The notes below the pieces were generated by a model. It was not told the origin of the DNA. It did not search any database and saw only the letters and a list, made by a program, of their open reading frames with translations. A DNA stretch of 64,000 bases from Rhodococcus qingshengii JCM 15477 (GTDB taxonomy: Bacteria > Actinomycetota > Actinomycetes > Mycobacteriales > Mycobacteriaceae), in assembly GCF_023221595.1 (NCBI RefSeq), contig NZ_CP096568.1, positions 1 through 64,000 of the forward strand, in the 5' to 3' direction. A program made the translations under genes and the position numbers. The first letter of the stretch is position 1, and each line of letters begins with the position of its first letter. Shown in pieces: positions 37,030 through 54,629 of the stretch.

Positions 37030-38025
37030 TTAGTCCTGGTGATTGACCTTGCGGTCGGCGATCAGAGCCACGATCTCATGCATGATGGCCGCTGCGACCA
37101 TCGCGGTGACCTTGCTCGGCAGGTCGCGCGTGGGCATCAAGCAGACGACGTCACCACCGACAACGTTCTTCCCACGCATGGCGCGCAAGATTTCGGTCAC
37201 CTGGTCGACAGTGAATCCGACCGTGCCCGCCTCGATATTGGAAACCCCGGGGGCGACGGTGGCGTCAAGGCAGTCCAGGTCGAAGGTGATGTAAAGCGGA
37301 GTGTCGCCGATGCGGTTCTGAATCATGTCGATGATGTTGGCGGCACCTTCTTCCTGGTAGCGCTTCATCGTGACCACGTCGTATCCGAGTTCGTAGGAGC
37401 GGTCGAGCCATCCCGGGCTGCGTGGGTTGCCGCGCATACCGATCTGGACGCTCTTGCTCGCATCGACGTTGCCCTGGTGTACCAGATATGCGGCCCAGTT
37501 CGCGGCCGACTTCTTCGCGCCGAGCCAGTGATCGAGGCTGTCGTACGCATCGGTATGAGCATCGAAATGAAGCAGTGCCACCTTCTCTCCCAGAGGAGAG
37601 TTCTCGTCCCCTGCAATGCCTTGCACGATTCCGCCCGTGATTCCGTGGTCACCGCCGATAGACACGGTGCGGGCGCCGGCACGGAAAACGCGATCGTAGT
37701 ACGTACTGATCCGTTCGATGCTCTTCTCGTTGTCTGCATACTCCGGTAGCGGGACGTCACCGAGATCCGCGACATTGACTGCGTCCCACGCCATGAAGCC
37801 GAAGGCATCGTGATACCGGCGAGCGTTGGCCGATATGTCGCGCACTGCGCGGGGCCCGTGATGCTGATCGCGGAGAGTCGTGTTGTTGCCCGAGGAGTGT
37901 GGAACACCGATCAGAGCAATATCGACGCCTTCGGGACTCTTGACGTGCGGCGCACGGAACAGTGTCGGAATGCCCCACCACTCAAGCATCTCCACCATCA
38001 TCAAGTCGTTTGCTTCGTTGTCCAT
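37030..38025 (-). CDS. Ureohydrolase (arginase/agmatinase family)
   Basis: 331-aa binuclear-metal hydrolase. Metal ligands: SIGGDHGITG (His), LLHFDAHTDAYD (Asp, His, Asp) and YITFDLDCLDATVAPGVS (two Asp). Members hydrolyse guanidino or amidino groups: arginine, agmatine, 4-guanidinobutyrate, guanidine or formiminoglutamate. Specificity loops do not allow a choice here. ATG 38023-38025 has GGAGG 5 nt upstream, and a perfect 15-bp operator palindrome sits 18 bp before the start. Divergent from the MFS-creatininase-NCS1 operon and, by the shared operator, part of the same regulon. Confidence 0.9.
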   Translation of the reverse strand: MDNEANDLMMVEMLEWWGIPTLFRAPHVKSPEGVDIALIGVPHSSGNNTTLRDQHHGPRAVRDISANARRYHDAFGFMAWDAVNVADLGDVPLPEYADNEKSIERISTYYDRVFRAGARTVSIGGDHGITGGIVQGIAGDENSPLGEKVALLHFDAHTDAYDSLDHWLGAKKSAANWAAYLVHQGNVDASKSVQIGMRGNPRSPGWLDRSYELGYDVVTMKRYQEEGAANIIDMIQNRIGDTPLYITFDLDCLDATVAPGVSNIEAGTVGFTVDQVTEILRAMRGKNVVGGDVVCLMPTRDLPSKVTAMVAAAIMHEIVALIADRKVNHQD

Positions 38026-38042
38026 TGGTACCTCCGAGTGAT

Positions 38043-38057
38043 GTGCGCAGAGCGCAC
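38043..38057. promoter_or_regulatory. Operator palindrome, ureohydrolase gene
   Basis: GTGCGCAGAGCGCAC, a perfect dyad with a 3-nt centre, 18 bp upstream of the ureohydrolase ATG. Same motif as the other sites of this regulon. Confidence 0.75.
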
Positions 38058-38281
38058 GAGTGATCGCTATACGCCCAAAGTGTGACCTTCCCCATGGCGT
38101 CCGTCAAGTGGCTAGCTCCACAAGAAGGATGAATTTCTCCACCCTGGAGTGAAGTTGCAACTTGGTTAGCGAAATCTTGCGGATGCGTAACGCCTGTTCC
38201 CGAGGTAGACGTGAGTCTGTTGTGAGGCTTGACACAGAACGTGCCGCGTGTTCACACTGATGCTTACAAATCCGCCCTAAC

Positions 38282-38296
38282 GGGCGCCTAGCGCAC
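38282..38296. promoter_or_regulatory. Operator palindrome, MFS-creatininase operon
   Basis: GGGCGCCTAGCGCAC, one base from a perfect dyad, just upstream of the MFS gene. Confidence 0.75.
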
Positions 38297-38313
38297 AAAT
38301 GGATGGCATTGAT

Positions 38314-39699
38314 ATGAAGACCGGTTCCGTGATCGACGATTCGCCCATACTCGGGTTTCACCGCAAATTGCGCTTTCAGTGCGCCGGCGGCACCTTCCTC
38401 GATGGGTTTCTACTGAGTTCGATGGCGGTCGCCATCCCGGGCATCAGCGACGAGTTCAAGCTGTCCCCAGTGATGCTGAGCATCATGGCTGCTGCCGCTC
38501 TGGTCGGAATTTTCGGCGGGAGCTTGATCTTCGGCTGGCTCAGCGACCGCATCGGCCGCCACAAGCTGTTCACGATCGACCTCGCTGTGTTCGCGATCGC
38601 TGCGTTCGCGACGTTCTTCGTCACCGATGTGTGGCAACTCATCGTCCTACGCCTGATAGTGGGCTTGGCGGTGGGCGCCGACTATCCGCTGGCAATGACC
38701 ATGGTCACCGAATGGATGCCGACCAAATCCCGTGCTGGGGGCATCGCCATGCTGGTGATGTCCTGGTTTGGAGGCGCTGTAACTGCATACATCGTCGGAT
38801 ATCTCATCGTTGCCGGAGCCGGCGACTCGTCGTGGCGTTGGGTTCTCGGCAGCGCCACGGTCCCGGCCGTGGTCACCTTGCTGCTGCGCGTGGGGATGCC
38901 CGAGTCCCCGCGTTGGCTCCTCTCGAAAGGACGTGGCGACGAAGCGCTGGAGATTTTGCGTACGGTGTACGGACCCGCGGCGACGCTTGCCGGGTTGGCG
39001 GCGGCCGGTGCGGATGAACCGGACCAAGGTCGTCTCAGCGAATTGTTCTCCAGGCGCTACATTCGGCGCACAGCATTCGCAGCCGGGCCGTACACAGCCC
39101 AGACGACCGCGTTCTTCGTGATCTTGACTTTCGAACCGACAATCCTGCTGTCGTTCGGACTCGATCACGGGAACATCAGCTACCTCGGCTCGGCACTGAC
39201 CAGTCTGCTCTTTCTGGTGGGCTGCCTGCCCGTACTCCGGTGGGCCGAGACAGTCGGACGGCGACGCCTTTACATCTGTTCGTTTGCCCTGATGACCCTG
39301 CCGCTATTGGCGCTGAGCGTGTTCCCGATCGAAGCAGCAGCCCTTGTGGTCGCATGTTTCTGCTTCTACGCCTTCGTGTCGGGTCCAACCAACGTGTTGT
39401 CCTGGTCGTATCCGAACGAGCTCTTCCCCACCCACATCCGCGGCAGTGCAGTCGGTTTCGCAACGGCGATGACGCGCATCGGCGCCACCGCAGGCACCTT
39501 CCTGCTACCGATCCTGCTGGAGTCGATCGGAACGCGGCCGACAATGCTGGTCGGCGCGGCCGTGGTCGCCGCGGGATTGGTCATGTGCGTCTTGTGGGCG
39601 CCGGAAACCAGTGGCAGATCACTCGACGAAGCCTCCAGCATGGCCGCGTCCCCAGGCCAGCGCAATACACTCGAACAAGACAGGACCGAGACCGCATGA
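38314..39699 (+). CDS. MFS transporter, metabolite:H+ symporter type
   Basis: 461-aa 12-TM carrier. Motif A-like FGWLSDRIGRHKLF, a conserved ADYPLAMTMVTEWMP after TM4 and PESPRWLL before the central loop place it among SHS/sugar-porter/AAHS-like symporters. The ATG at 38314 is chosen because the paralogue at 54971 starts at the equivalent place (M..SVIDDSPIL); an ATG at 38299 directly abuts the operator. Its stop overlaps the creatininase-family ATG (ATGA). Probably imports the regulon substrate. Confidence 0.88.
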   Translation: MKTGSVIDDSPILGFHRKLRFQCAGGTFLDGFLLSSMAVAIPGISDEFKLSPVMLSIMAAAALVGIFGGSLIFGWLSDRIGRHKLFTIDLAVFAIAAFATFFVTDVWQLIVLRLIVGLAVGADYPLAMTMVTEWMPTKSRAGGIAMLVMSWFGGAVTAYIVGYLIVAGAGDSSWRWVLGSATVPAVVTLLLRVGMPESPRWLLSKGRGDEALEILRTVYGPAATLAGLAAAGADEPDQGRLSELFSRRYIRRTAFAAGPYTAQTTAFFVILTFEPTILLSFGLDHGNISYLGSALTSLLFLVGCLPVLRWAETVGRRRLYICSFALMTLPLLALSVFPIEAAALVVACFCFYAFVSGPTNVLSWSYPNELFPTHIRGSAVGFATAMTRIGATAGTFLLPILLESIGTRPTMLVGAAVVAAGLVMCVLWAPETSGRSLDEASSMAASPGQRNTLEQDRTETA

Positions 39700-40433
39700 T
39701 TTCGCAAGCACCCACGTGGGAACAACTTCGGCAGAGTTTTGCTGCAGGCCGGGCAGCGGTCCTGGCCATCGGGTCCTACGAAGCTCACGGCCCGCACTTG
39801 CCGGTCGACACCGACACAGTGATAGCCACCGCGGTCGTCGGCGAGATCGCCGAGCGTATCGACGGGATAGCACTGCCGGTACTCCCCTACGGCGCTACCT
39901 CGAGACCTCGATCGGGTGGTGGCGACGTCTTCCCACTACCCGCACTGCGAATACCGACACTGTTCGCCGTGGTGTCCGAGTTGGTCGACGGAATCGTTCG
40001 AGCCGGAGCTCGAGAACTGGTCGTCATTACCGGCCACTACGAGAATGCATCGGTGATGTGGGACGCAGTTCAAGAAGCTACCGCTGAGAAAGACTGTCGT
40101 AGCGTCATTTTCGATGCGCCCTGGGAACTTATCGATGACGATGTTCTGACCGAGACCTTCCCTGACGGTGTGAACTGGGCCGCCGACCACGGCGGTCTGC
40201 TGGAGACGGCCCTCATGCTTCATCTCGATCCCGACCGTGTCGGCGAACCGCCGCCGCCGTGGTCGCAGGCACCCCGACAGTACGACGTGTTGCCCACACC
40301 TGCCGATGCCGTACCGCCTAACGGCATCGTGAACGATGCACGCCGCGTCACCGCCTCCGACGGCGCACTTTTGTTCGGTGCCATGATCGACGGTCTCGAA
40401 CGAGCGTTGCACCGCGAGCACATTCACCGCTGA
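39696..40433 (+). CDS. Creatininase-family amidohydrolase
   Basis: 245-aa protein. Metal-binding signature AIGSYEAHGPHLPVDTDT near residue 20 (Glu, His, Asp), ITGHYENAS (His) and DHGGLLETALML (Glu) match creatinine amidohydrolase and relatives such as MftE-type and formamide-lyase enzymes. The family opens cyclic amides or cleaves C-N bonds using two metal ions. Starts within the MFS stop (ATGA). A creatinine-like cyclic guanidine or related lactam is a plausible substrate given the ureohydrolase and carbamoylsarcosine-amidase-like neighbours; this is inference. Confidence 0.87.
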   Translation: MISQAPTWEQLRQSFAAGRAAVLAIGSYEAHGPHLPVDTDTVIATAVVGEIAERIDGIALPVLPYGATSRPRSGGGDVFPLPALRIPTLFAVVSELVDGIVRAGARELVVITGHYENASVMWDAVQEATAEKDCRSVIFDAPWELIDDDVLTETFPDGVNWAADHGGLLETALMLHLDPDRVGEPPPPWSQAPRQYDVLPTPADAVPPNGIVNDARRVTASDGALLFGAMIDGLERALHREHIHR

Positions 40434-40471: not shown

Positions 40472-42073
40472 GTGCCTGAAACACCTATTCCCCCAGACTC
40501 GTCCCCTCTGATCGAGTCGTACGGGGTTGAACCGATCCCACCCGAAGCCCGTACGTCGACCCCATGGGACTTCCTGCGAATCGCCACCGGGTCCGTCCTC
40601 ACCACGGCAACCGTGCTGCTCGGCACCCTTCCGATCGCGCTCGGGCTGAGTTTCGCCGCTGCAGCTACCGCGATCGTCTGCGGCGTCATGATCGGCGCAT
40701 TGCTCCTGGCGCCGCTGGCGTCGATCGGGCAGCGATCGCATACCAACAATGCAGTCTCCTCCGGTGCACATTTCGGAGTCACGGGACGCGTGGTGGGTTC
40801 TGTTCTCTCGCTGCTGGTCGCCGTCACCTTCTTCACGCTGTCGGTATGGGTCTGCGGTGACGCCGTCGTGTCCGCGGTCGGGTTGTTCGCTCCCGGACTC
40901 GCCAACGACGCCACTGCAGCGGTTGCCTACGGATTGGCTGCACTCGCAACCTTCTCGATCTGTATCGTCGGCTACCGTTGGCTGCTCGCGGCCAACAAGT
41001 TCCTGGCGCCCGCCATGCTGATTCTGATGGCCCTCGGATTCGTGGCCCTCGGCGGCCAGATCGACCTCGGTTATCCCGGAACCGGCGAGTACGCAGTCGG
41101 CGGATTCTGGACCACGTGGTTTGCCGCCCTCCTCATCGTCATGGCAAACCCGATCTCATACAGCCCATTCCTGGGCGACTGGTCACGGTACGTTCCGCAG
41201 CGATTCCCGGCACGCCGCCTTCGTCTGGCGGTCGTCGTCGCCCAAATATCGTCTCTCGTGCCGTTCCTGTTCGGTGCCGCCACAGCATCTGTGGTTCCGG
41301 ATGCAGGTGCGTACGTCGCAGGGCTGGTAGACATCTCGCCTGCCTGGTACGTAGCGCCGCTTATCGTGGTCCTCATCGGAGGTAGCCTCGGAGGCAGCGT
41401 CTCCTCGCTGTACGGAACCGGGCTCGATTTCTCGTCGGTGGTGCCGCGCCTGAACCGCATGCAGGCCACCGTCGCGATCGGCGCGGTGTCGATCGTCCTA
41501 GTGTTTCTCGGGCGGTTCGTCTTCAACCTGGTCGACACGGTGAACGCGTTCACCACCCTGATCTTGGTTCTGGCGGCACCGTGGGTGTCGATACTTCTCG
41601 TCGGTTACCTCACACGTCGAGGGCACTACCTCGTCGAGGATCTGCAGGTGTTCAACCGCGGTCAACAAGGCGGTGCGTATTGGTTCACTCGGGGTTACAA
41701 CGTCCGCACGATGATCGCGTGGGGTGTCGGTGCGGTCCTGGGGCTTTCGACGGCCAACACCGCACTCATTGCGGGTCCCCTCAAGGACATCGCTGGTGGT
41801 ATCGATGTCAGCTTCTTCTTGTCGTTCCTGGTCAGTGGCGCTATCTACTACGCAACCCTGCTCGCTTTCCCGGAGCCGGGATACGTCTTTCCCGAAGCCG
41901 GGGGACGATTCGTTCCTTCCGGTCCCGTGTCGGTTCCGGCTCCGCCCATCGTCACCGTGGATGCCGACCTTGCCCGACGCCGCGCACCGTCATCGAGTGA
42001 GCTCATGGAAGAACATGAACAGCACCTCGTTCCTCCCGCCCCGAAAGACTCCGTGAGACCGTCCAGCAACTGA
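40472..42073 (+). CDS. NCS1-family cytosine/purine/hydantoin/allantoin permease
   Basis: 533-aa transporter with about 12 TM segments and NCS1 hallmarks: PPEARTSTPWDFLRI before TM1, AIVCGVMIGALLLAPLASIG QRS, ANPISYSPFLGDWSRYVP in the TM6-7 region and FVFNLVDTVNAF. Starts at GTG 40472 after CGGAG. NCS1 carriers import nucleobases, hydantoins, allantoin or vitamins with H+ or Na+, again pointing to a small N-heterocycle or ureide. Last gene of the MFS-creatininase-permease operon; a strong terminator follows. Confidence 0.9.
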   Translation: MPETPIPPDSSPLIESYGVEPIPPEARTSTPWDFLRIATGSVLTTATVLLGTLPIALGLSFAAAATAIVCGVMIGALLLAPLASIGQRSHTNNAVSSGAHFGVTGRVVGSVLSLLVAVTFFTLSVWVCGDAVVSAVGLFAPGLANDATAAVAYGLAALATFSICIVGYRWLLAANKFLAPAMLILMALGFVALGGQIDLGYPGTGEYAVGGFWTTWFAALLIVMANPISYSPFLGDWSRYVPQRFPARRLRLAVVVAQISSLVPFLFGAATASVVPDAGAYVAGLVDISPAWYVAPLIVVLIGGSLGGSVSSLYGTGLDFSSVVPRLNRMQATVAIGAVSIVLVFLGRFVFNLVDTVNAFTTLILVLAAPWVSILLVGYLTRRGHYLVEDLQVFNRGQQGGAYWFTRGYNVRTMIAWGVGAVLGLSTANTALIAGPLKDIAGGIDVSFFLSFLVSGAIYYATLLAFPEPGYVFPEAGGRFVPSGPVSVPAPPIVTVDADLARRRAPSSSELMEEHEQHLVPPAPKDSVRPSSN

Positions 42074-42112: not shown

Positions 42113-42184
42113 CATACCGCCCGCGCCCGTAAGCCCCACCCGTGGCTTAAGCCCCACCCGTGGCTTGCGGGCGCGGGCGGTATG
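42113..42184. terminator. Large nested hairpin, bidirectional terminator
   Basis: 17-bp perfect arms at 42113-42129 and 42168-42184 enclose two tandem copies of aagccccacccgtggctt, each able to fold as its own small hairpin. It lies between the convergent permease and IclR genes and should stop transcription from both sides. 42185-42478 holds nothing else supported. Confidence 0.8.
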
Positions 42185-42478: not shown

Positions 42479-43300
42479 TCAGATCGAGTGCGCCAGATCG
42501 CTGGGTCCTCGTCGCAACCTCAAGTCAGCTTCGATGCGTGCTGCTGTGTTGGTCATGGCACTGATCAGCGTCGACTCGTACTCGCGGGATCCGGACGAGG
42601 TGTGCATGACCGACAGGTTCAGCGCGGCGACAGGGTAGCGGGATCGGTCATGCACTGGAACTGCATAGGCGCACAGTCGTTCGTCGAACTCTTGGTCGAG
42701 AACCGCCCAACCGCGGTCAGCAGTCTCCCGAATACTGTTGCGTAACTGCGCTTTCGAGGCCACTGTCATATCGGTGTACTGGGTGAGTTCAACAGTTTGC
42801 AGGTACGTGTCAAGTTCCTGTTCGTCGAGTGCGCTCAGCAACACTCGCCCTGTTGAGGCGATCCACGCTGGGTAGCGCGTGCCGGTCGTCACGTTCAACA
42901 TGAAGAGGTTCTCCGCCCGGGTGTGCGCAATGTAGACGATCTCGGCGCCGTGCAGGACCGTCAAGCCTGCATCGAGGATGGACAACGGAGTCTGCTCGCG
43001 GACTGTGGAAATAAGATCAGTCAGGTGCGGTAGCACGGTGGCCGACAGGGGCGCTGAGGTCAGGTAGGAGTAACCCAACTCCAAGATTTTGGGCGTCATG
43101 GTGAAATATCGCCCGTCCGCGCGAAGGTACCCGAGGTCCACCAGCGTGAGAACGAATCGGCGAGCGGCTGCGCGCGTGATACCGGTGGAATCGGCGACGT
43201 CGGTGATGGTCTGGCGATCACGTGAGTCGCTGAACGACTGGATCACGGACAATCCACGCTCGAGTGATTGCACGTAGTAGCGCTCCCGATCGTCCTCCAT
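42479..43300 (-). CDS. IclR-family regulator of the nitrogen-compound regulon
   Basis: 273-aa protein: winged helix (TDVADSTGITRAAARRFVLT LVDLGYL, about 30-57) then the PcaR/PcaU-like effector domain (ILDAGLTVLHGAEIVYIAHT, YPAWIASTGRVLLSAL, VPVHDRSRYPVAALNLSV). The ATG at 43298-43300 (GGGGAAT upstream) is preferred to the 96-codon extension, which is low complexity. Divergent from the oxidoreductase operon; the 248-bp intergenic region contains three copies of the G(T/G)GCGC-NNA-GCGCAC palindrome, making it the prime candidate to bind that motif. Site positions close to start codons suggest repression relieved by a pathway intermediate. Confidence 0.9.
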   Translation of the reverse strand: MEDDRERYYVQSLERGLSVIQSFSDSRDRQTITDVADSTGITRAAARRFVLTLVDLGYLRADGRYFTMTPKILELGYSYLTSAPLSATVLPHLTDLISTVREQTPLSILDAGLTVLHGAEIVYIAHTRAENLFMLNVTTGTRYPAWIASTGRVLLSALDEQELDTYLQTVELTQYTDMTVASKAQLRNSIRETADRGWAVLDQEFDERLCAYAVPVHDRSRYPVAALNLSVMHTSSGSREYESTLISAMTNTAARIEADLRLRRGPSDLAHSI

Positions 43301-43395: not shown

Positions 43396-43514
43396 GTGCG
43401 CTGTGCGTCCATTTGTCCGACCGAATCCATCGATCCCACATGCCTATTGACGGGCGGTGGGACACAAGGCACACTGCAAAGTGCGCAGAGCGCCATACTG
43501 GGCGCACAGCGCGC
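43396..43514. promoter_or_regulatory. Cluster of three operator palindromes between IclR and oxidoreductase genes
   Basis: Sites at 43396-43410 (complement GGACGCACAGCGCAC), 43481-43495 (GTGCGCAGAGCGCCA) and 43500-43514 (GGGCGCACAGCGCGC). The last two are 19 bp apart start to start (about two helical turns). The rightmost ends 34 bp before the oxidoreductase ATG. Confidence 0.75.
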
Positions 43515-43548: not shown

Positions 43549-44745
43549 ATGGCGAAGACGCGCGTAGCGATCGTGGGCGCCGGCACACTCGGGTTGTCGA
43601 CCGCGCTTCACCTGACGAAGTCGGGGCAGTTCGATGTGACGGTTGTGGAGGCCGAACACATCGCCGAAGGGTCGTCGAGTCGGTCGATCGGCATCATCGA
43701 GACCCAGTACATGAACGAGTTCGACATCGCGGTGCGAGCGTTCGGATTGCAGTTCGCAAAGACCCTGGCTGCCGCCGAGGGACTCCACATAAATGTCAAC
43801 GGCTACCTGCGATTGGGAGACTCCGATCACGCGATCGATCAGTACACCCGCAGCGTCGAGTTGCAGAAAACGTACGGTGTTCACGACGCTCGCGTGCTGG
43901 ACAAAGCGGACATCTCCCGCCTGATTCCGGAACTCGAGATGGGTGATCGTGTCGGAGGGCTGTACGGACCCAGTGATGGATACGTCGACGGCCACCTGTT
44001 CGCAACATCGATGAGCACCGTCGCTCGACGCGGCGGCGCGACGATCCTGCAGAAAGCCAAACTGCTCGGCGTGACGTCCGGCGCCGGCGACGAGATCGTC
44101 CTGGACACCACCCGCGGTTCAATCACCGCAGACGTTGTCGTCAATGCCGCAGGAGGATGGGCGGCACAGGTCGGAGACCTCCTCGGCGCTCCTGTGACAC
44201 TCAATCCCCAACGCCACCAAGCGATCACGGTGACGCTCTCGCGCCCACTGGGATACACCATGCCGTCGGTGATGGACTACGTGCCCGGCAGTGGACGAGC
44301 CGGATTGTACTTCCGGCACGAGAACGACTTGTCGCTCTTCGCCGGCCTCCATACCGAAGAAACCATCCAGGACGCCAGCGATCCCGACACCGTCTCGTAC
44401 ACCGTCGACGAGTCCTTCGTCGAGCAGATCGCCGAGGCGCTCGCTCACCGCTTGCCTGGCCTGGACGAGGCCGGTCTGGGCCGCGGCTGGGCCGGTATGT
44501 ACCCGATGTCGTTCGATCAACAACCGGTGGTCGGGCCGCACCCGACGGACAGCAGGATCGTCTGCGCTCTGGGCGCCGGCGGCAACGGCATTCAGTTGGC
44601 CCCTGCCATCGGCAAAACCGTCGCCGAGTACCTCGAAGGGGTGACCCCCTCGTTGGCCGGCCCCGGATCGAAATGGGATTCGTCCCGACTTTCCACATCC
44701 GATCCGGCCGTCGCCGGATCCAATCTGCAAGGAGCACAACAGTGA
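43549..44745 (+). CDS. FAD-dependent oxidoreductase, DAO/sarcosine oxidase beta type
   Basis: 398-aa flavoprotein. FAD fold AIVGAGTLGLSTALHLTKSG at residues 7-26, DAO-type VVNAAGGWAAQVGDLLG near 200 and C-terminal GAGGNGIQLAPAIGKTVAEY. Relatives oxidise secondary or tertiary amines (sarcosine, dimethylglycine, N-methylproline, proline). ATG 43549 has GGACGGAG upstream. Stop overlaps the aldehyde dehydrogenase start (GTGA), so the amine oxidation product is likely passed to that enzyme. First gene of the long plus-strand operon. Confidence 0.88.
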   Translation: MAKTRVAIVGAGTLGLSTALHLTKSGQFDVTVVEAEHIAEGSSSRSIGIIETQYMNEFDIAVRAFGLQFAKTLAAAEGLHINVNGYLRLGDSDHAIDQYTRSVELQKTYGVHDARVLDKADISRLIPELEMGDRVGGLYGPSDGYVDGHLFATSMSTVARRGGATILQKAKLLGVTSGAGDEIVLDTTRGSITADVVVNAAGGWAAQVGDLLGAPVTLNPQRHQAITVTLSRPLGYTMPSVMDYVPGSGRAGLYFRHENDLSLFAGLHTEETIQDASDPDTVSYTVDESFVEQIAEALAHRLPGLDEAGLGRGWAGMYPMSFDQQPVVGPHPTDSRIVCALGAGGNGIQLAPAIGKTVAEYLEGVTPSLAGPGSKWDSSRLSTSDPAVAGSNLQGAQQ

Positions 44746-48073: not shown

Positions 48074-49249
48074 ATGCCAGATACCGACGACCATCAGCTA
48101 TACCAGCGTGCAGTCGCAGTCATGCCCGGTGGCAGTACCCGCTCCACCCTGTTCGTTGCACCGCATCCCCCCTACGCGGTGAGCGGCAAGGGCGCCGAGA
48201 TCACCGATGTCAACGGCCACGTCGTGATCGACTGCAACAACAACTACACCTCGCTTATCCACGGCCACGCCGACCCGGAGATACTCCAGATCGTTAGCGA
48301 GGTAGCTGCCGAAGGGACCGCGTTCGGCCTACCGACCCGCTACGAAGTCGAGATGGCCGAAACACTGCGTGCTCGGACCGACGGTATCGAGCAGTGGCGT
48401 TTCTGCAACTCAGGCACCGAGGCAGTCATGATGTTGATTCGGGCGGCTCGCGCATACACCGGCCGCGACGTGATCGTGCGCTTTGCCGGCAGCTATCACG
48501 GCACCTACGATGCCGTCGTCTCCCCCCAGGCGCAGGGCGTCCCGGCTGCGGTGTCCGAGACAATCGTCGAAGTCCCACAGGGCGACATCGACGCCGTCGA
48601 ACAAGCATTGATCCACCACCGCGGACGAGTGGCCGCGGTGCTGATCGACCTCATGCCCAACCGGGCCGGCCTCGTGCCGGCACGCGTCGACGACGTCGCC
48701 AGATTGGCCGACTTGACCCGCGAACACGGTGCGCTCCTCGCCGTCGACGAAGTCATCACCTTCCGACTCGAGCACGGTGGTCTGCATACCCGCTACGGAC
48801 TGAACCCGGACCTGATCTCACTGGGCAAAGTGATCGGCGGCGGGTTCGCGGTCGGAGCAATCGGCGGCCGCGCAGAAATTCTGTCGTCGTTCAGCCCCCT
48901 GAGCGACGGAGCCGTTGCCTGGGGAGGCACGTTCAGTGCCAATCCGGTGACCATGGCAGCCGGATTGGCTGCACTGCGCCGATTCTCGCCCTCGGCCGTG
49001 CGCGAACTCAACGACCGTGGCGAGGCTCTACGTACGCGGCTGCGGGACAACGGAGTTGACGCCAATGGTAGCGGTTCGCTCATACGGCTGATCGACGACA
49101 ATCCACGCGCACTGTGGTGGAAATTGTACGAAGCAGGTGTACTCACGGGCACGAACGGACTCCTGGCGCTGTCCACCGCCATGACCGACGAACACCTCGA
49201 CGCCATCGGCGACGCGGTCATCACGGTCCGCAACCAGATGTCGGACTGA
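48074..49249 (+). CDS. Class III aminotransferase, glutamate-1-semialdehyde aminomutase-like
   Basis: 391-aa PLP enzyme: VMPGGSTRSTLFVAPHPPYA near the start, FCNSGTEAVMMLIRAARAYT GRD, Asp in LLAVDEVITFRLEHGG and the PLP lysine in LISLGKVIGGGFAVGAIGGR. It is shorter than HemL (about 430 aa) and out of heme context, so a catabolic omega- or alpha-aminotransferase is more likely. ATG 48074 follows GGGGCCCGGAA. It could move the amino group of the substrate to 2-oxoglutarate, with the next gene regenerating 2-oxoglutarate. Confidence 0.88.
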   Translation: MPDTDDHQLYQRAVAVMPGGSTRSTLFVAPHPPYAVSGKGAEITDVNGHVVIDCNNNYTSLIHGHADPEILQIVSEVAAEGTAFGLPTRYEVEMAETLRARTDGIEQWRFCNSGTEAVMMLIRAARAYTGRDVIVRFAGSYHGTYDAVVSPQAQGVPAAVSETIVEVPQGDIDAVEQALIHHRGRVAAVLIDLMPNRAGLVPARVDDVARLADLTREHGALLAVDEVITFRLEHGGLHTRYGLNPDLISLGKVIGGGFAVGAIGGRAEILSSFSPLSDGAVAWGGTFSANPVTMAAGLAALRRFSPSAVRELNDRGEALRTRLRDNGVDANGSGSLIRLIDDNPRALWWKLYEAGVLTGTNGLLALSTAMTDEHLDAIGDAVITVRNQMSD

Positions 49250-49291: not shown

Positions 49292-52200
49292 ATGCACAGC
49301 GCTTCCGTGCCGGACCAACTACCAGAAGGTTTCGTCGCGGACGAATCTCCTTCCGAAGAATTGATCGTCCTCTCCGATCTCGGCGAACGCCTCAGCGCTC
49401 TCCGGCAGGGAGGAGCCGAGCTCTTCTTTCGCCGACGTGGTGACAACCTCGAGCTGGTAACACTGACCGCGACGTCACCGCCGCCCACATTGGGGCAGGT
49501 TCTCCCGATGCTCCAGTGCCTGGATCTGCAGATCGTCGACCGCCGCAGCCAGGCGCTGGTCCGTGGCGACGGTTTGCAATGTCATGTCGTGGCGGTCGGG
49601 TTGGTCAGTACCGGCCGCCTACCCGCTGCGACGTCGCAGCAGCGGGTACGTATGGACGACGCCCTGCACGCGATGTGGCGCCGGGACACCGATGTCGATG
49701 ACTTCAACAAACTTGTGACACACGCTGAACTTACCTGGAAAGACGTCGCTGTGCTGCGGACATACGCGCGCTATCTACGTCAGCTCGGACAACCCTTCAG
49801 CGCACGTTTCGCGTCCTCCGTCTTGGTCGAACACGCCGATATCGCTACCGCATTGGTAGATCTGTTCCGCTCGCAGGTGGTCGGGGCGACGGCGACCGAC
49901 GGCGCCTCGGCACGACGTGAGTACATCACACAGGCCATTCAGGCGGTCCCGCAACTCGACGCCGACCGATTTCTTCGCGCATTACTCGCCGTCGTGTCGG
50001 CCACGACGCGCACGAATGCCGCGGACCCCCTCGTTCCGTCGAGGGATCACCCACTCGCGCTGAAGATCGCACCGCAATCGGTACCGTTTGCACCCGTGCC
50101 TCGCCCACTGTTCGAGATCTATGTTCTGTCACCGGATGTCGAAGGAGTGCACCTGCGGTTCGGGCGCATCGCGCGCGGGGGGCTGCGCTGGTCCGACCGG
50201 TCCGAAGATCTCAGAACCGAAATTCTCGGGCTCGCAACCACGCAGCAAGCCAAGAATGCCGTCATCGTCCCGGTCGGCGCAAAGGGCGGATTCGTTCTGC
50301 GCCGCCCACCCCAAGACAGTCAAGCACGTTCTGCCGCAGCCAAACACGGTTACGAAACATTTGTTTCCGCACTGCTCGATGTCACCGACAACGCTGAGAA
50401 ATCCGCTCTCAACACTCCGGCCGGCGACACCGCGACAGAGGACGGACAAGACTCCTATCTTGTGGTAGCTGCGGACAAGGGCACCGCCACCTTCGCGGAC
50501 ACCGCCAACGACATTGCGTGCGCACGTGGATTCTGGCTCGGCGACGCGTTCGCCAGCGGTGGACGGGCCGGGTACGACCACAAAGAAATGGGCATCACCG
50601 CTCGCGGCGCCTGGATCAGTGCCCAACGCCACCTCAACGAGATCGGAATCGACCCCGACCGAGCACCATTCACCGCTGTCGGTGTGGGCGACATGAGCGG
50701 CGACGTCTTCGGCAACGGCATGCAGCGGTCCAGGTCCATCCGGCTGATCGCAGCCTTCGACCACCGAGACATCTTCCTCGACCCCGACCCCGACCCCGAC
50801 GCGTCTTATCGAGAACGACAGCGACTCTTCGATACCGCCGGATCGAGCTGGCAGGACTACGACCGCACTCGAATCAGCCGCGGCGGCGGGGTATGGTCAC
50901 GCACCACCAAGACCATCGAGCTTTCCGCCGAAATTCGCCGCGCCCTGGGCCTAGCGACCGAGGCGACGTCCCTCACCGCAGACGAGCTGATTCAGGCAAT
51001 TCTCCGCGCCCCCGTCGACATGGTGTGGAACGGCGGGATCGGCACGTACGTGAAGGCGTCCTTCGAATCCCATCTGTCCGTCGGCGACAAGTCCACCGAT
51101 ACGGTGCGAATCGATGCAGATCAACTGCGGGCAAAGGTAGTCGTCGAAGGCGGCAATCTCGGGCTGACACAGGCAGCTCGAATTCAGTACGCCCGCAACG
51201 GAGGGCGAGTCAATACCGATGCTCTGGACAACTCTGCCGGAGTCGACTGCTCGGACCACGAGGTGAACATCAAGATCGCATTGTCGTCCTTGTCCGCCTC
51301 CGGGACGCTCGACTTGGCAGATCGCGATGCGCTCTTGCACGACCTCGAACCCGATGTCGCTCGTAAGGTGCTGGCCAACAATTTCGATCACAACGAGACA
51401 CTGGGAGTAAGCCGTCGAAACGCTGTGGAATTGAACGATGTCCACGCCAGACAGGTTGCGATCCTGCATGATCTCGGTGACCTCGACCGCACAATGACAG
51501 GTCTACCGTCGGCCGAGGAATTCGACGCGATGACGCGCGCCGAACGGGGCCTACTCTCCCCCGATTTGGCGGTGCTGATGGCACATACGAAGTTGTCCCT
51601 CAAGCGGGACCTGGTAGCAGAACCCGCCCTCGACGAGCCGGAATTTGGCGAGTACTTCGTCAACTACTTTCCCCATCGCCTCCGCTCGGCGGTCGCGACA
51701 CACGGGCGAGCGCACCCGCTACGCCGCGAAATCGCCGCTACCGAGATAATCAATCACGTTGTTGCTGTCGCGGGATTCTCCTTCGTGCACCGACTTCGCG
51801 AGCAAACCGGTGCGAGCACGCTCGATTGCGTGCGGGCCCTGCGCATCGTCTCGGAACTGTTCGGCATCGACGACATCAAGCACATACTGGACACCTCGTG
51901 CATGCACGTCGACGTCGCAGACAATGTTCGATTGATCATCCGCCTGCTTCTCGACCGTTGCGCAGCGGTATTGATCAGTCGGCGACGACTGGACTTCAGT
52001 CTGGAAACGACCCGGCTCAAGCCGATTCTGCAACAGATCGGCACGCTGGTCACGGACGAGTCAACCGAACCGGACCGCATTCTCCCTGACCCACTACGGA
52101 CGCTGCTTTGCGACGATGGCGACTCGAACGCAAACCGGATCGCGGACTGGATCCGGTTCGCGCGGTTGGGTCCGGAACTGTTGAATGTCGCTTATCTGGC

Positions 52201-52597
52201 GACGACGACGCAATGCAATGCGTCCGAGATAGCCACGGTGTTCTTCGATATCCATCGCCGCCTGCGCATTGCGGAACTGGGGGATGCCGTCAACCGAATC
52301 AGGATGACCGGATCGCGCTCGCATTTCCTTGCGCGACTTGCGATCGGATTCGAGATAGCAGAAGCCCCGGTCGCGGTGACAGAGTCGCTGCTGATCGCCG
52401 GCCACAGTTCCGCTCCGCTGTTCGATGGAGATCTCGGTACCTCGCACCGATTGCAATTGAAGGAGATCGACAGCGTGACCGCCGCCGTCATCAGTGCGGC
52501 AGAACCCGACATTGACGACCTTCTCGTGCTGATGCACAGGTTGAAGGGTCTGGCCAATCTCGCTGCTGCGATCGGATCCGTGGCAGCGGACACATGA
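49292..52597 (+). CDS. Large NAD-dependent glutamate dehydrogenase
   Basis: 1101-aa enzyme converting glutamate to 2-oxoglutarate and ammonia. The substrate-binding block HLRFGRIARGGLRWSDRSED, TEILGLATTQQAKNAVIVPV GAKGGFVLR (catalytic Lys) and VGVGDMSGDVFGNGM, then NAD domain WNGGIGTYVKA and VVEGGNLGLTQAARI, are characteristic of the large GDH class (GDH180/GDH115). It lacks the long N-terminal ACT regions of the about 1600-aa mycobacterial enzyme, so it is a short-form paralogue dedicated to this cluster. ATG 49292 after GAAAGG; 42 bp after the aminotransferase. Confidence 0.9.
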   Translation: MHSASVPDQLPEGFVADESPSEELIVLSDLGERLSALRQGGAELFFRRRGDNLELVTLTATSPPPTLGQVLPMLQCLDLQIVDRRSQALVRGDGLQCHVVAVGLVSTGRLPAATSQQRVRMDDALHAMWRRDTDVDDFNKLVTHAELTWKDVAVLRTYARYLRQLGQPFSARFASSVLVEHADIATALVDLFRSQVVGATATDGASARREYITQAIQAVPQLDADRFLRALLAVVSATTRTNAADPLVPSRDHPLALKIAPQSVPFAPVPRPLFEIYVLSPDVEGVHLRFGRIARGGLRWSDRSEDLRTEILGLATTQQAKNAVIVPVGAKGGFVLRRPPQDSQARSAAAKHGYETFVSALLDVTDNAEKSALNTPAGDTATEDGQDSYLVVAADKGTATFADTANDIACARGFWLGDAFASGGRAGYDHKEMGITARGAWISAQRHLNEIGIDPDRAPFTAVGVGDMSGDVFGNGMQRSRSIRLIAAFDHRDIFLDPDPDPDASYRERQRLFDTAGSSWQDYDRTRISRGGGVWSRTTKTIELSAEIRRALGLATEATSLTADELIQAILRAPVDMVWNGGIGTYVKASFESHLSVGDKSTDTVRIDADQLRAKVVVEGGNLGLTQAARIQYARNGGRVNTDALDNSAGVDCSDHEVNIKIALSSLSASGTLDLADRDALLHDLEPDVARKVLANNFDHNETLGVSRRNAVELNDVHARQVAILHDLGDLDRTMTGLPSAEEFDAMTRAERGLLSPDLAVLMAHTKLSLKRDLVAEPALDEPEFGEYFVNYFPHRLRSAVATHGRAHPLRREIAATEIINHVVAVAGFSFVHRLREQTGASTLDCVRALRIVSELFGIDDIKHILDTSCMHVDVADNVRLIIRLLLDRCAAVLISRRRLDFSLETTRLKPILQQIGTLVTDESTEPDRILPDPLRTLLCDDGDSNANRIADWIRFARLGPELLNVAYLATTTQCNASEIATVFFDIHRRLRIAELGDAVNRIRMTGSRSHFLARLAIGFEIAEAPVAVTESLLIAGHSSAPLFDGDLGTSHRLQLKEIDSVTAAVISAAEPDIDDLLVLMHRLKGLANLAAAIGSVAADT

Positions 52598-53055
52598 GGG
52601 CTGCCGCCGGGCGCACAATGATGCGCTGACACAGCTGGTGGCCGCACAGCACTTCGGCCTCACGCCCGGTGGCGCTCGGCCGAGGCGCCACTGCCTGCTA
52701 TTCATCAGCACCTCGGCGATGCGTCGAACGCCACGACGATCACCAATTCCTGGCTGTAAATAGTCGTGGCGTGCACACGGCATCAGACGCCCTCGGAGCA
52801 GCTCACGACAGGCTTTGATTTGCGCGGGTGATGGTTCGTTTGATGACGCTGATCATGCCCGGATGCCTTTCCGATGGGCGACGCCGTTGTCGCCCATCGG
52901 CCTGCAAAGAGCACTTCGAGGCAGGCTTGTAATGGGCCATGCTCTCGCGGCAACGGGGACGGGCAGACTCGCTGGCCCGTGAGGAGCTAGGCGTCAGGCG
53001 GATCTCGGGTCGGCCGTCCGAGTTCTGTCACGAAGGGACCATCGACCTGCGTGTC
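52598..53055. other. Convergent intergenic region
   Basis: Between the GDH and SDR stops. No gene supported; contains the terminator at 52871-52900. Confidence 0.5.
52871..52900. terminator. Perfect 12-bp hairpin, bidirectional terminator
   Basis: CCGATGGGCGAC (52871-52882) and GTCGCCCATCGG (52889-52900) around gccgtt. Lies between convergent operons. Confidence 0.75.
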
Positions 53056-53808
53056 CTAACGGCCCCGCAACCGCCCGCCACTGACGTTGTGAATGGCCCC
53101 GCTGACCCAGTCTCCCGTCGAATCGAGAAGATAGCGCACCGAGTCGACGAGTGGTTGTGTACCACCGAACCCCAGAGGGTGCTCCGCAAGATAGACCGGG
53201 ACGTCTTCGGGATCCATCGGCGTGCCGGTGTTGCCCGTCGGGCCGGGCATGAGGCAGTTCACCAAGATCCCGGATTCTTCCAGCTGACTGGCCAGTCCCA
53301 CGGTAAGCCCGACAAGTCCAGCCTTGGCTGCCAGGTATGCCGGCGATATCGTTCGTCCACCGATGTATATCGACGACGAACTCATGAAGATGATCCGGCC
53401 ATATCCACGGGCCTTCATATTCGGTAGGACGGCTTGCGTGCACCACCACTGCCCGGACAAATCTGTGTCAATGAGGGTGTTCCAGTGCGTGGCGTCGATA
53501 TCAGAGGCGAGTCCGGGCTGAGCATCGAGGCCGCCGTTGTTTATCAGAGCGTGAATGTTCCCGTGCCGCTGTAGGACTGTTTCCACCATCGAATTGACCG
53601 AGTCACGATCGGCGAGATCAACGAAGTGCGCCGTGGCATCTCCCCCAGCATGACGGATGTCGGCGGCGACGGACTCAGCGAGATCGAGGTCGATATCAAC
53701 CAACGCAACCGTCGCACCCTGCGCAGCGAGGCCGCGACCGATGGCCTCGCCGATTCCCTGTGCACCACCTGTCACGAGGGCAACACCATCAAATGTGCAG
53801 GTCATCAT
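53056..53808 (-). CDS. SDR-family oxidoreductase
   Basis: 250-aa short-chain dehydrogenase: cofactor motif VTGGAQGIGEAIG near residue 12, ALVDIDL (Asp favouring NAD), NNG, catalytic Ser in SSSSIYIGGR, Tyr/Lys in PAYLAAKAGLVG. Two tandem ATG codons (53808 and 53805) follow the upstream SDR stop by 8 bp; the frame extending further up overlaps that gene and is not used. Probably oxidises an alcohol or dihydrodiol; substrate unknown. Confidence 0.87.
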   Translation of the reverse strand: MMTCTFDGVALVTGGAQGIGEAIGRGLAAQGATVALVDIDLDLAESVAADIRHAGGDATAHFVDLADRDSVNSMVETVLQRHGNIHALINNGGLDAQPGLASDIDATHWNTLIDTDLSGQWWCTQAVLPNMKARGYGRIIFMSSSSIYIGGRTISPAYLAAKAGLVGLTVGLASQLEESGILVNCLMPGPTGNTGTPMDPEDVPVYLAEHPLGFGGTQPLVDSVRYLLDSTGDWVSGAIHNVSGGRLRGR

Positions 53809-53816
53809 CGTCCCCG

Positions 53817-54629
53817 TCACACCGAGTACCACGAAGTGGCGCCGCCGTCGACTTTGATCACTGCGCCCGTGACGAACGAACTGGCAGGCGACGCCAGGAA
53901 CAACGCTGCCGAGGCAATCTCGTCCGCCGTGCCATTGCGCTCGAGGAGGATCAGCCTGTCCTGCGCAGCACCGAGACCATCGTCGGAAGCGAACAACTCG
54001 AGTCCCTTCTCTGTTGCCGTGGGTCCAGGAACGAGGCAGTTGGCCCGGATATTGTCGGCGCCGTGGTCGACCGCCAGGGCACGGGTGAGGTTGATGATTC
54101 CTGCCTTGGCCGCGCAGTAGCCGGCAGATCTGCGCGCTCCGAGAAGACCGTATTCGGATGAGGTCGTGATTATCGATCCGCCGCCGCTCTCGACGAGAGC
54201 AGGGATTCCGTACTTGGTGAGATAGAAGGTGCCGCTCAGGTTGACCGCCAGCATGCGTTCCCACGAGTCGACGGACGCTTCGACAGCGCTACCCCACTCA
54301 TGAGCGCCGACGTTCGCGTAGAGGACGTCGATACGGCCGAAGTCGGCGCTGATCTGGCCGATTGCGCCCTCAACCTGACCGGCGTCACTGACATCCGCCC
54401 GGTATGCGCGTGCGATTGGCCCCCCTGCTGCGGCAATCTGCTCGACAACGGGTTCTCCATCTGCGATATCGACCACCGCAACGCAGGCCCCGGCTCGCGC
54501 GAACTGTATAGCCGCAGCGCGCCCGATACCCGTCGCAGCGCCGGTGATGACGGCAACACGGCCATCAAGAGATAACTTTCCGGCCCCGCGGGGCGGCTGA
54601 TGTAGTTCGGTACTCGACTCAGCGGTCAT
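53817..54629 (-). CDS. SDR-family oxidoreductase
   Basis: 270-aa short-chain dehydrogenase: ITGAATGIGRAAAIQFARAG near residue 28, VVDIADG, YANVG in place of NNAG, Ser in ITTSSEYGLLG, Tyr/Lys in AGYCAAKAGIINL, C-terminal VIKVDGGAT. ATG 54627-54629 with AAAGGG upstream. Two-gene operon with the SDR downstream, divergent from the second MFS transporter across about 340 bp. No copy of the regulon operator lies close to its start, so its regulation may differ. Confidence 0.88.
   Translation of the reverse strand: MTAESSTELHQPPRGAGKLSLDGRVAVITGAATGIGRAAAIQFARAGACVAVVDIADGEPVVEQIAAAGGPIARAYRADVSDAGQVEGAIGQISADFGRIDVLYANVGAHEWGSAVEASVDSWERMLAVNLSGTFYLTKYGIPALVESGGGSIITTSSEYGLLGARRSAGYCAAKAGIINLTRALAVDHGADNIRANCLVPGPTATEKGLELFASDDGLGAAQDRLILLERNGTADEIASAALFLASPASSFVTGAVIKVDGGATSWYSV

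What the first reader, a model, noticed from the sequence alone, without database searches (positions are those of the whole stretch)
37030..54629. Unassigned catabolic pathway for a guanidino/ureido/cyclic-amide compound
Ureohydrolase, creatininase-family, DUF1989, carbamoylsarcosine-amidase-like hydrolase, DAO-type amine oxidase, RocA-like ALDH, aminotransferase, NAD-GDH and an NCS1 permease are brought together under one putative operator. The end products appear to be glutamate and 2-oxoglutarate. I know of no described pathway with exactly this set; creatinine, N-methylhydantoin, guanidinobutyrate or proline-betaine-like compounds are candidates.
Basis: inference. Interest (0 to 1): 0.85.

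Follow-up and report, generated by a model that had tools for sequence, protein, structure and literature searches.

The report
Unassigned nitrogen-heterocycle breakdown gene cluster
A soil Rhodococcus plasmid carries a self-contained, jointly regulated set of genes that looks built to import a ring-shaped nitrogen compound, open the ring and feed the pieces into amino-acid metabolism; almost the same set sits in two mycobacterial chromosomes, and what compound it eats is still unknown.

Summary
The genes behave as one regulon: five exact copies of KGCGCMNAGCGC lie in three promoter gaps of the module and nowhere else in the window (pattern derived from these sites). Ten of ten core genes recur at 75-94% identity in two genomes taken to be Mycobacterium. 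One operator pair keeps a 239-bp spacing in all three.

Two things change the reading. The 'ureohydrolase' keeps all six metal ligands but has Cys where the solved relatives aligned have Glu, in 120 of 120 relatives listed, and lacks the HGxP His, so its substrate need not be an ordinary guanidino acid. And the module matches a plasmid of R. qingshengii CX-1, from carbendazim-contaminated soil, beside a ring dioxygenase cluster. That cluster was not found at the mycobacterial loci and has no operator copy, so a carbendazim link is possible but not favoured.

Best reading: an uncharacterised, laterally moving pathway for a small cyclic guanidine, ureide or lactam. The substrate is not identified.

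The parts
37030..38025 (-). Arginase-family metallohydrolase, 'Cys-type' clade (331 aa)
   Evidence: PF00491 210 bits; best solved relative by sequence and by fold is 3-guanidinopropionase 3nip/3niq; six metal ligands kept, Cys295 for the usual Glu
38044..38055 (.). Operator copy 1 (TGCGCAGAGCGC), upstream of the ureohydrolase gene
   Evidence: counterparts L111 14946 and L113 14545 match only the looser TGCGCNNNGCGCA, with one and no mismatch
38283..38294 (.). Operator copy 2 (GGCGCCTAGCGC), upstream of MFS1; 239 bp from copy 1
   Evidence: strict counterparts L111 15185 and L113 14784, same 239-bp spacing
38314..39699 (+). MFS transporter 1
   Evidence: PF00083/PF07690; start from annotation of CX-1
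39696..40433 (+). Creatininase-like cyclic amidohydrolase (245 aa); start overlaps the MFS1 stop
   Evidence: PF02633 154 bits; TIGR04448 179.7 bits, under the cut-off of 235; residues aligned with creatininase 1j2t
40472..42073 (+). NCS1-family permease
   Evidence: PF02133 169 bits; no solved relative at E<=0.001 by phmmer
42113..42184 (.). Strong hairpin between the convergent NCS1 and IclR genes, probably a two-way terminator (function inferred)
   Evidence: 91-nt stretch 42105-42195 folds at -59.9 kcal/mol, z -6.0; arms placed
42479..43300 (-). IclR-family regulator, PcaR/PobR-like (273 aa)
   Evidence: PF01614, PF09339; TIGR02431 238 bits, under its cut-off of 284.75; start from CX-1 annotation
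43482..43512 (.). Operator copies 3 and 4 (43482-43493, 43501-43512), between IclR and the DAO operon
   Evidence: the matching mycobacterial gaps have no match to either pattern
43549..44745 (+). DAO-type FAD amine oxidase/dehydrogenase
   Evidence: PF01266 205 bits; best solved relative 1y56_B, 'sarcosine oxidase' of the depositors
44742..46286 (+). ALDH, glutamate-semialdehyde-dehydrogenase-like; start overlaps the DAO stop
   Evidence: PF00171 404 bits; NF002852 390 bits, under the cut-off of 648; GQKCSACSR and LAEMGG motifs
46349..47086 (+). DUF1989 protein
   Evidence: PF09347 124 bits; solved relatives 3oru, 3di4 and TMAO demethylase 9q59
47174..47932 (+). Isochorismatase-type cysteine hydrolase (252 aa)
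   Evidence: PF00857 115 bits; RutB 68.6 and biuret hydrolase 66.4 bits, far under cut-offs
48074..49249 (+). Class III PLP aminotransferase, GSA-aminomutase/beta-transaminase-like (391 aa)
   Evidence: PF00202 153 bits; solved relatives 6k8h, ForI 6ssd, beta-Phe aminotransferase 4ao9
49292..52597 (+). NAD-dependent glutamate dehydrogenase, short form (1101 aa)
   Evidence: PF05088 726 bits, PF21074 142 bits
53056..53775 (-). SDR oxidoreductase 1
   Evidence: relatives of 69% and 46% in the mycobacterial loci
53817..54629 (-). SDR oxidoreductase 2
   Evidence: relatives of 70% and 68% in the mycobacterial loci
54937..54948 (.). Operator copy 5 (GGCGCATAGCGC), upstream of MFS2
54971..56335 (+). 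MFS transporter 2, paralogue of MFS1; extends the module beyond the given interval
   Evidence: operator in front; no separate orthologue in the mycobacterial loci, its best match there is the MFS1 gene at 70-72%

Best explanation
An IclR-controlled, laterally moving catabolic module for a small nitrogen heterocycle (a cyclic guanidine, ureide or lactam of creatinine or hydantoin type), not yet assigned to a substrate. SHOWN by sequence: gene content, operator copies, and conservation of ten core genes in three replicons of two genera. INFERRED steps: (1) the NCS1 permease, helped by the MFS carriers, imports the heterocycle and the IclR protein senses it or a product; (2) the creatininase-like metalloenzyme opens the ring at its amide; (3) the N-C-N part is removed by the Cys-type arginase-fold enzyme and/or the cysteine hydrolase (ureido group), perhaps with DUF1989; (4) the remaining amine is turned into a semialdehyde by the FAD oxidase (secondary amine) or the aminotransferase (primary amine); (5) the adjacent glutamate-semialdehyde-dehydrogenase-like ALDH makes the acid; (6) NAD-GDH recycles glutamate to 2-oxoglutarate and ammonium. 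SDRs (and, in mycobacteria, an amidase and extra NCS1 permeases) bring in hydroxylated or amide relatives of the substrate.
For: Families. Regulon. Conservation: 10 of 10 core proteins in both mycobacterial loci at 75-94%. Rare distribution: creatininase relative at E<=1e-45 only in the own genome among 401 family genomes and in 2 of 297 genomes of one genus; ureohydrolase at E<=1e-80 only in the own genome among 397 and among 394. Ureohydrolase at 94% exceeds the one usable chromosomal control protein at 71%, which fits lateral transfer. Partial sets among 90 loci with distant creatininase relatives: creatininase directly beside an arginase-family gene in 2 (Acetobacter estunensis L033, Rhizobiales MAG L027; Pfam for L033), beside an NCS1 gene in 2 (two Sinomonas, L026, L038), beside DUF1989 in 1 (L037). 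ALDH-aminotransferase-DAO recurs on a Mesorhizobium plasmid. NCS1 carriers can import guanidine derivatives: MetT (PMC13390362, outline with abstract and passages).
Against: No substrate evidence at all. The ureohydrolase lacks the Glu and HGxP His of solved relatives, which argues against a plain guanidino acid in step 3. In Acetobacter the arginase-family genes beside creatininase are of the ordinary Glu type and only 33% and 24% identical to ours, so that pairing is a looser parallel. 50 of the 90 creatininase loci showed no other module gene, 13 showed only SDR matches and 5 showed no match at the thresholds used (ten of the loci have only about 1.5 kb of flank). All ten proteins scanned fall below the curated cut-off of their best family. 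GDH is absent from the G1404 locus. The second chromosomal control had no clear orthologue (best 30-32%), so the transfer argument rests on one control. Mycobacterial DAO/IclR gaps show no operator match.
Confidence: 0.5

Rival explanations
1. The module finishes carbendazim/2-aminobenzimidazole breakdown. The plasmid's Rieske dioxygenase, an SDR and the BphC-like extradiol enzyme would open the benzene ring; cleavage beside the ring junction would leave a 2-aminoimidazol-4-one (creatinine-like) or, after deamination, a hydantoin. The creatininase-like enzyme would open it, and decarboxylation would give a C5 semialdehyde for the RocA-like ALDH.
For: Window DNA matches CX-1 plasmid unnamed2, from carbendazim-contaminated soil, over all 17,701 bases queried at a reported 100.0%. 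A Rieske/extradiol/hydrolase/FAH/tautomerase cluster lies at 17.4-33.3 kb. A review reports hdx (2_orf0061) and edoA (2_orf0059) of CX-1 as acting on 2-AB/2-HB, with later steps unresolved (PMC11349639, passages). No diol dehydrogenase (SDR) is annotated in that cluster; an SDR of the module could supply it (inference).
Against: The ten core genes exist in two mycobacterial genomes with no orthologue of the Rieske alpha subunit anywhere in them (best 39%). Within the two loci of about 39 kb, the other aromatic-cluster genes gave no match at E<=1e-3 (tautomerase, FAH, two hydrolases, reductase, extradiol, beta subunit, ferredoxin) apart from an amidase relative at 33-41% and family-level matches of the second IclR and DUF1989 genes at 24-29%. 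No operator copy lies in the aromatic cluster. An IS3-type element and debris separate the two blocks. The aromatic cluster has its own IclR gene.
Confidence: 0.13
2. Dihydropyrimidine-type route: a 2-amino-pyrimidinone such as (dihydro)isocytosine is opened to 3-guanidinopropionate, cleaved to beta-alanine and urea, and beta-alanine is transaminated.
For: Nearest solved ureohydrolase is 3-guanidinopropionase by sequence and fold; the aminotransferase resembles, among others, beta-amino-acid transaminases; the cysteine hydrolase's best NCBIfam family is RutB; NCS1 is the nucleobase family.
Against: Cys in place of the Glu in 120 of 120 relatives; the ALDH scores higher with glutamate-semialdehyde dehydrogenases (390 bits) than with the methylmalonate-semialdehyde model (228 bits); no dihydropyrimidine dehydrogenase is annotated in the module.
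Confidence: 0.12
3. Arginine-glycation route: a methylglyoxal hydroimidazolone (a substituted aminoimidazolone on ornithine) is opened to carboxyethyl-arginine, split to ornithine and N-carbamoyl-alanine, the latter cut by the cysteine hydrolase, ornithine going through aminotransferase and the P5C-dehydrogenase-like ALDH to glutamate.
For: One enzyme family of the set for each step; an N-substituted guanidine might explain loss of the Glu. All inference.
Against: No evidence that such a compound is transported by NCS1 carriers; the one search run (ten of 70 papers listed, none opened) showed no such pathway; the SDRs and FAD oxidase are unexplained.
Confidence: 0.07
4. Plain creatinine pathway: creatininase, then an arginase-fold enzyme in place of creatinase, then sarcosine oxidation by the DAO enzyme.
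For: Metal and Trp/His residues of creatininase are kept; DAO resembles sarcosine and dimethylglycine oxidases.
Against: TIGR04448 and soxA scores below cut-off; creatininase Asp175 (residue recalled) is Ala here; ALDH, aminotransferase and GDH are not needed for sarcosine.
Confidence: 0.08

Closest known systems
Metformin utilisation genes (metCaCb hydrolase, metT NCS1 carrier) of Aminobacter
   Same: Ureohydrolase-superfamily enzyme with an NCS1 carrier; MetCa also has Asn for the usual catalytic His (PMC11271267, passages; PMC13390362)
   Different: MetCaCb is a heteromer of two arginase-family proteins and MetCa needs a pocket Glu, E320 (that it is the Glu replaced here is my inference); here there is one arginase protein with Cys, plus creatininase, DAO, ALDH, aminotransferase and GDH
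3-Guanidinopropionase GpuA / guanidinobutyrase GbuA / agmatinase
   Same: Fold and all six metal ligands; GpuA is the best match by sequence and fold, 32% identity, TM 0.84
   Different: Glu of EVSP replaced by Cys and the HGTPF motif replaced by SAANW
Creatininase (creatinine amidohydrolase)
   Same: Fold family, metal-binding and Trp/His residues
   Different: Below the TIGR04448 cut-off; no creatinase gene annotated beside it
Proline/arginine catabolism (proline dehydrogenase, RocA P5C dehydrogenase)
   Same: DAO closest to 1y56_B (that this is a proline dehydrogenase subunit is recalled); ALDH closest to RocA-type models
   Different: The ALDH is well below the RocA-type cut-offs; both are surrounded by ring-opening hydrolases
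Carboxyguanidine deiminase CgdAB / urea-carboxylase-associated DUF1989 proteins
   Same: DUF1989 domain
   Different: TIGR03424 99 bits against a cut-off of 285; a single DUF1989 gene and no carboxylase annotated in the module

Membership tests
Guanidino-acid ureohydrolases (GpuA, GbuA, agmatinase, guanidinase) | Six metal ligands of the dinuclear site | tested here: met
   H127, D155, H157, D159, D249, D251 in 120 of 120 listed relatives
Guanidino-acid ureohydrolases (GpuA, GbuA, agmatinase, guanidinase) | Guanidinium-binding Glu (EVSP/EVAP motif) | tested here: not met
   Cys295 in 120 of 120 relatives; Glu in all five solved sequences aligned, two of them agmatinase, and in 4 of 4 other arginase-family rows of A2. 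Role of the Glu is recalled
Guanidino-acid ureohydrolases (GpuA, GbuA, agmatinase, guanidinase) | Non-coordinating catalytic His of the HGxP motif | tested here: not met
   SAANW instead; residue 176 is His in 100 and Asn in 20 of 120 relatives, Asn here. MetCa works with Asn at the equivalent place
Agmatinase (TIGR01230) | Score over curated cut-off 174.3 | tested here: not met
   127.5 bits
Metformin hydrolase type pair | Two adjacent arginase-family subunits | tested here: not met
   One arginase-family gene in the module
Creatininase (TIGR04448) | Score over curated cut-off 235 | tested here: not met
   179.7 bits
Creatininase (TIGR04448) | Metal ligands and Trp154/Trp174/His178 (roles and numbers recalled) | tested here: met
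   E29, H31, D40, H114, E116, E170, W143, W161, H165 align with 1j2t; each kept in 104-120 of 120 relatives
Creatinine-creatine-sarcosine pathway | Creatinase and sarcosine oxidase beside creatininase | tested here: not met
   No creatinase domain among the ten module proteins scanned; soxA_mon 72.6 bits against 479.65
L-glutamate gamma-semialdehyde dehydrogenase (TIGR01237, NF002852) | Score over curated cut-offs 659.65 / 648 | tested here: not met
   352.3 / 390.4 bits
L-glutamate gamma-semialdehyde dehydrogenase (TIGR01237, NF002852) | Catalytic Cys and Glu motifs | tested here: met
   GQKCSACSR and LAEMGG; reading of roles recalled
RutB / biuret hydrolase | Score over curated cut-offs 377.95 / 370 | tested here: not met
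   68.6 / 66.4 bits
UAAP2 DUF1989 (TIGR03424) | Score over curated cut-off 284.7 | tested here: not met
   99.1 bits
Bacterial NAD-GDH | Catalytic and C-terminal domains over gathering score | tested here: met
   PF05088 725.8 and PF21074 141.6 bits; no NCBIfam match
PcaR/PcaU/PobR IclR subfamily (TIGR02431) | Score over curated cut-off 284.75 | tested here: not met
   238 bits
Any of the above, as activity | Turnover of the named substrate | not testable with these tools
   needs assays

The most novel reading that the evidence does not exclude
A previously undescribed pathway for a cyclic guanidine or ureide in which a whole clade of arginase-fold enzymes, lacking both the guanidinium Glu and the HGxP His, performs a reaction other than simple guanidino-acid hydrolysis; in Rhodococcus it may have been recruited beside the carbendazim ring-cleavage genes to mineralise the nitrogen part of the fungicide, a stage that the review read here says is still incomplete.
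Probability: 0.25. Interest if true: 0.72.

Novelty: new variant of a known kind. Interest (0 to 1): 0.55.

Why it matters
It gives a bounded, testable gene set (ten core genes including one regulator, one operator) for an unassigned nitrogen-heterocycle pathway shared by two actinobacterial genera. It exposes an arginase-fold clade with at least 120 listed members, some labelled 'guanidinopropionase' or 'agmatinase' by their sources, whose active site does not fit those labels. And it sits beside ring-cleavage genes on a plasmid from a carbendazim-contaminated site, where the fate of the ring nitrogen is open.

Tried and rejected
Carbendazim link as main explanation: attractive at first, demoted after finding the ten core genes in two mycobacterial genomes without a Rieske orthologue.

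With ten more loci (flanks of about 1.5 kb) that makes 90. At E<=1e-10 and over half the query length: 5 no match, 50 creatininase only, 13 creatininase plus SDR matches only; arginase family in 3 (2 adjacent), NCS1 in 2 (both adjacent), DUF1989 in 4 (1 adjacent), DAO in 3, ALDH in 5, aminotransferase in 1, cysteine hydrolase and GDH in none. Loci may hit several.

Rieske homologue list: none of the 120 rows shown has the contig lengths 842,819 or 6,741,306 seen for creatininase/ureohydrolase relatives, which agrees with independence, but 4165 proteins matched and only 120 were listed.

AlphaFold model of the ureohydrolase: fold clear, but stretches 45-54, 166-172 and 299-301 near the active site have pLDDT under 50, so no statement on specificity.

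NCS1 permease against PDB sequences: no match at E<=0.001. Operator patterns TGCGCNNNGCGCA (<=1 mismatch) and GCGCNNAGCGC were not or barely enriched by count. Whole genome: KGCGCMNAGCGCAC 6 matches, 3 in the module, 3 chromosomal, reversed-pattern control 3; the ORFs round the chromosomal ones were listed and not followed further. Second chromosomal identity control was not an orthologue.

Full report
WHERE IT IS. The window is contig C6:1-64000 of an unnamed 7.5-Mb genome. The 17,701 bases queried (37,000-54,700) match Rhodococcus qingshengii CX-1 plasmid unnamed2, NZ_CP054209.1, in one piece at a reported 100.0%; that record is linear, 288 kb, from carbendazim-contaminated soil in Zhejiang. 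Over the module, positions there are window + 22 (the offset is -1 near the left end). It was the only one of 72,556 plasmid records with 80% or more of the query; one other (Tsukamurella) matched part of the GDH gene at 73% (the tool may leave out records very near the window's own genome).

GENES. The strands and overlaps suggest these transcription blocks: ureohydrolase (-); MFS1-creatininase-NCS1 (+); IclR (-); DAO-ALDH-DUF1989-cysteine hydrolase-aminotransferase-GDH (+); an SDR pair (-); MFS2 (+). The MFS1/creatininase and DAO/ALDH genes overlap by four bases. A strong hairpin (-59.9 kcal/mol, z -6.0) separates the convergent NCS1 and IclR genes. The module ends at about 56,335 and not at 54,629.

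REGULATION. KGCGCMNAGCGC occurs five times in the window, all in the gaps 38,026-38,313, 43,301-43,548 and 54,630-54,970 (0.43 expected, 0 of 100 shuffles with five). The pattern was derived from these sites, and looser forms are not convincing by count, so I looked for independent support. In each mycobacterial locus the ureohydrolase/MFS gap holds two sites 239 bp apart exactly as here: the one next to MFS matches the strict pattern, the one next to the ureohydrolase only the looser TGCGCNNNGCGCA (one mismatch in L111, none in L113). The rest of the gap has diverged apart from a TTGACACA element and a few islands. The mycobacterial gaps before the extra NCS1/IclR genes hold strict matches at L111 12,701 and L113 12,704 and a looser one at L113 3,289. 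The mycobacterial DAO/IclR gaps hold no match. In the whole own genome the longer form KGCGCMNAGCGCAC has 6 matches, 3 of them here; the reversed control pattern has 3. The IclR protein is the natural candidate for the binder (inference).

CONSERVATION. Close relatives are rare: creatininase at E<=1e-45 only in the own genome among 401 family genomes and in 2 of 297 genomes of another genus of that family; ureohydrolase at E<=1e-80 only in the own genome among 397 and among 394 (the samples overlap). The two hits, G1404 and G1553, were opened. All ten core proteins are there (identity G1404 / G1553, percent): ureohydrolase 94/94, MFS1 85/85, creatininase 76/75, NCS1 81/83, IclR 82/82, DAO 79/81, ALDH 85/83, DUF1989 83/84, cysteine hydrolase 89/87, aminotransferase 78 and 85 (two pieces across a locus border) / 77. 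GDH is in G1553 (66 and 56 in two pieces across a locus border) and not in the G1404 locus. SDR relatives are at 69/46 and 70/68; MFS2 has no separate orthologue there. The block of IclR and the DAO-to-GDH operon is inverted relative to Rhodococcus. A conserved chromosomal protein of the own genome is 71% identical in both, so 94% for the ureohydrolase suggests lateral movement; a second control had no clear orthologue. Two homologues, ureohydrolase P0002 (83%) and creatininase P0131 (66%), are each listed with a longest contig of 842,819 bases, probably the same contig.

EXTENDED MODULE. Next to the mycobacterial core lie an amidase, SDRs and one (G1404) or two (G1553) further NCS1 permeases, with a second IclR gene 56-57% identical to ours. 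Several importers of the NCS1 family with oxidoreductases beside them suggest a group of related heterocycles (inference). Partial versions elsewhere, among 90 loci with distant creatininase relatives: SDR, creatininase and two arginase-family genes with LysR in Acetobacter estunensis and creatininase followed by an arginase-family gene in a Rhizobiales MAG; NCS1 directly before creatininase in two Sinomonas; creatininase beside DUF1989 in a Rhodospirillaceae MAG. But 50 of the 90 showed no other module gene, and the Acetobacter arginase genes are ordinary Glu-type ones. ALDH-aminotransferase-DAO occurs on a Mesorhizobium plasmid; DUF1989 with agmatinase genes on a Mesorhizobium ciceri plasmid.

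THE UREOHYDROLASE. Its nearest solved relative is 3-guanidinopropionase, by sequence and fold (TM 0.84, 32%). All six metal ligands are invariant in the 120 best relatives, but the position that holds Glu in the five solved sequences aligned (two of them E. coli agmatinase) is Cys in 120 of 120, and the HGTPF motif is SAA[HN]W; residue 176 is His in 100 and Asn in 20, Asn here. Metformin hydrolase MetCa also has Asn for the usual His, but needs a pocket Glu, E320 (PMC11271267, passages read; that E320 is the same Glu is my inference). For guanidinases, His222 is a required residue and Glu344 is named among residues that might matter (PMC11410670, passages); by my reading of the alignment neither is kept here. 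So this clade is arginase-like in fold and metal site but should not be filed under any characterised guanidino-acid hydrolase. Relatives at 52-54% in Ruegeria pomeroyi and Alisedimentitalea lie beside another arginase-family gene annotated speB (Glu-bearing in the one aligned, Alisedimentitalea) and a betaine-type ABC importer.

OTHER ENZYMES. The creatininase-like protein keeps the metal and Trp/His residues seen in 1j2t, with Ala at the place of Asp175 (residue roles recalled), and falls short of the creatininase equivalog cut-off (179.7 against 235). The ALDH is nearest to glutamate-semialdehyde dehydrogenases but far below their cut-offs. The FAD enzyme is nearest to 1y56_B and dimethylglycine dehydrogenase. 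The aminotransferase is nearest to 6k8h, ForI, GSA aminomutase and beta-phenylalanine aminotransferase.

CARBENDAZIM CONTEXT. At 17.4-33.3 kb lie a HcaE-like Rieske dioxygenase, ferredoxin, reductase, BphC-like extradiol dioxygenase, HsaD/BphD-like hydrolases, a 4-oxalocrotonate-decarboxylase-like FAH protein, a tautomerase, an amidase and an IclR gene. A review reports for CX-1 that hdx (2_orf0061) and edoA (2_orf0059) convert 2-AB/2-HB to a trihydroxybenzimidazole and a ring-opened product, with later steps missing (PMC11349639, passages; one further paper, PMC11767360, passages and discussion section). That these ORFs are the Rieske alpha and extradiol genes here is my inference from gene order. 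The chemistry would fit the module, but the module stands alone in the mycobacteria, shares no operator with the aromatic genes and is separated by an IS3-type element, so I rate this as a rival at 0.13.

NOVELTY. Ten searches of the held open-access library (four on the gene set; six on neighbouring topics) showed in their listings no description of this gene set. Five papers were opened, in outline, passages or sections only. The original CX-1 paper (Long et al. 2021, known here only through the reference list and citing text) was not read. I call it a new variant of a known kind: an ordinary sort of catabolic regulon with an undescribed enzyme set and one enzyme clade that departs from the active-site rules of its family. 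The substrate remains unknown.

Noticed in passing
window 17376-33332: Rieske ring-hydroxylating dioxygenase, BphC-like extradiol dioxygenase, two alpha/beta hydrolases, FAH decarboxylase-like protein, tautomerase, amidase and IclR: probably the hdx/edoA benzimidazole cluster reported for CX-1.
   Followed up: partly
window 1180-3407: DncV-like nucleotidyltransferase next to a SAVED-domain protein in the CX-1 annotation: looks like part of a CBASS-type anti-phage system (function recalled).
   Followed up: no
window 14062-16250: Second DUF1989 gene coupled to an APC permease; both match the TMAO demethylase/permease models (NF053776, NF053774) well below cut-off. The genome has five DUF1989 matches.
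   Followed up: no
window 33554-34729: IS3-type transposase in two overlapping frames between the aromatic cluster and the module (family assignment by eye); an IS630 transposase lies at 24039-25388.
   Followed up: partly
window 26342-28308: A short ALDH remnant (345 bases) and a thiolase-like protein matching mainly the C-terminal model, signs of decayed catabolic genes.
   Followed up: no
CX-1 plasmid NZ_CP054209.1 166171-169659: Another DUF1989 gene, a urease beta-subunit gene and an IclR gene together; possibly a urea-handling neighbour on the same plasmid.
   Followed up: no
L020 14977-16931, L021 14977-16958: In Alisedimentitalea and Ruegeria pomeroyi the Cys-type arginase homologue is paired with a second arginase-family gene behind a betaine-like ABC importer; resembles the unexplained arginase pairs with both metal sites intact mentioned in PMC11271267.
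   Followed up: partly
window 42113-42184: Unusually strong hairpin whose inner part is an 18-base unit present twice, at 42130 and 42148, between convergent genes.
   Followed up: partly
window about 5.3-7 kb against NZ_CP054209.1: The offset to the CX-1 plasmid changes from -1 to +22 between about 5.3 and 7 kb, so the two plasmids are not identical throughout.
   Followed up: no
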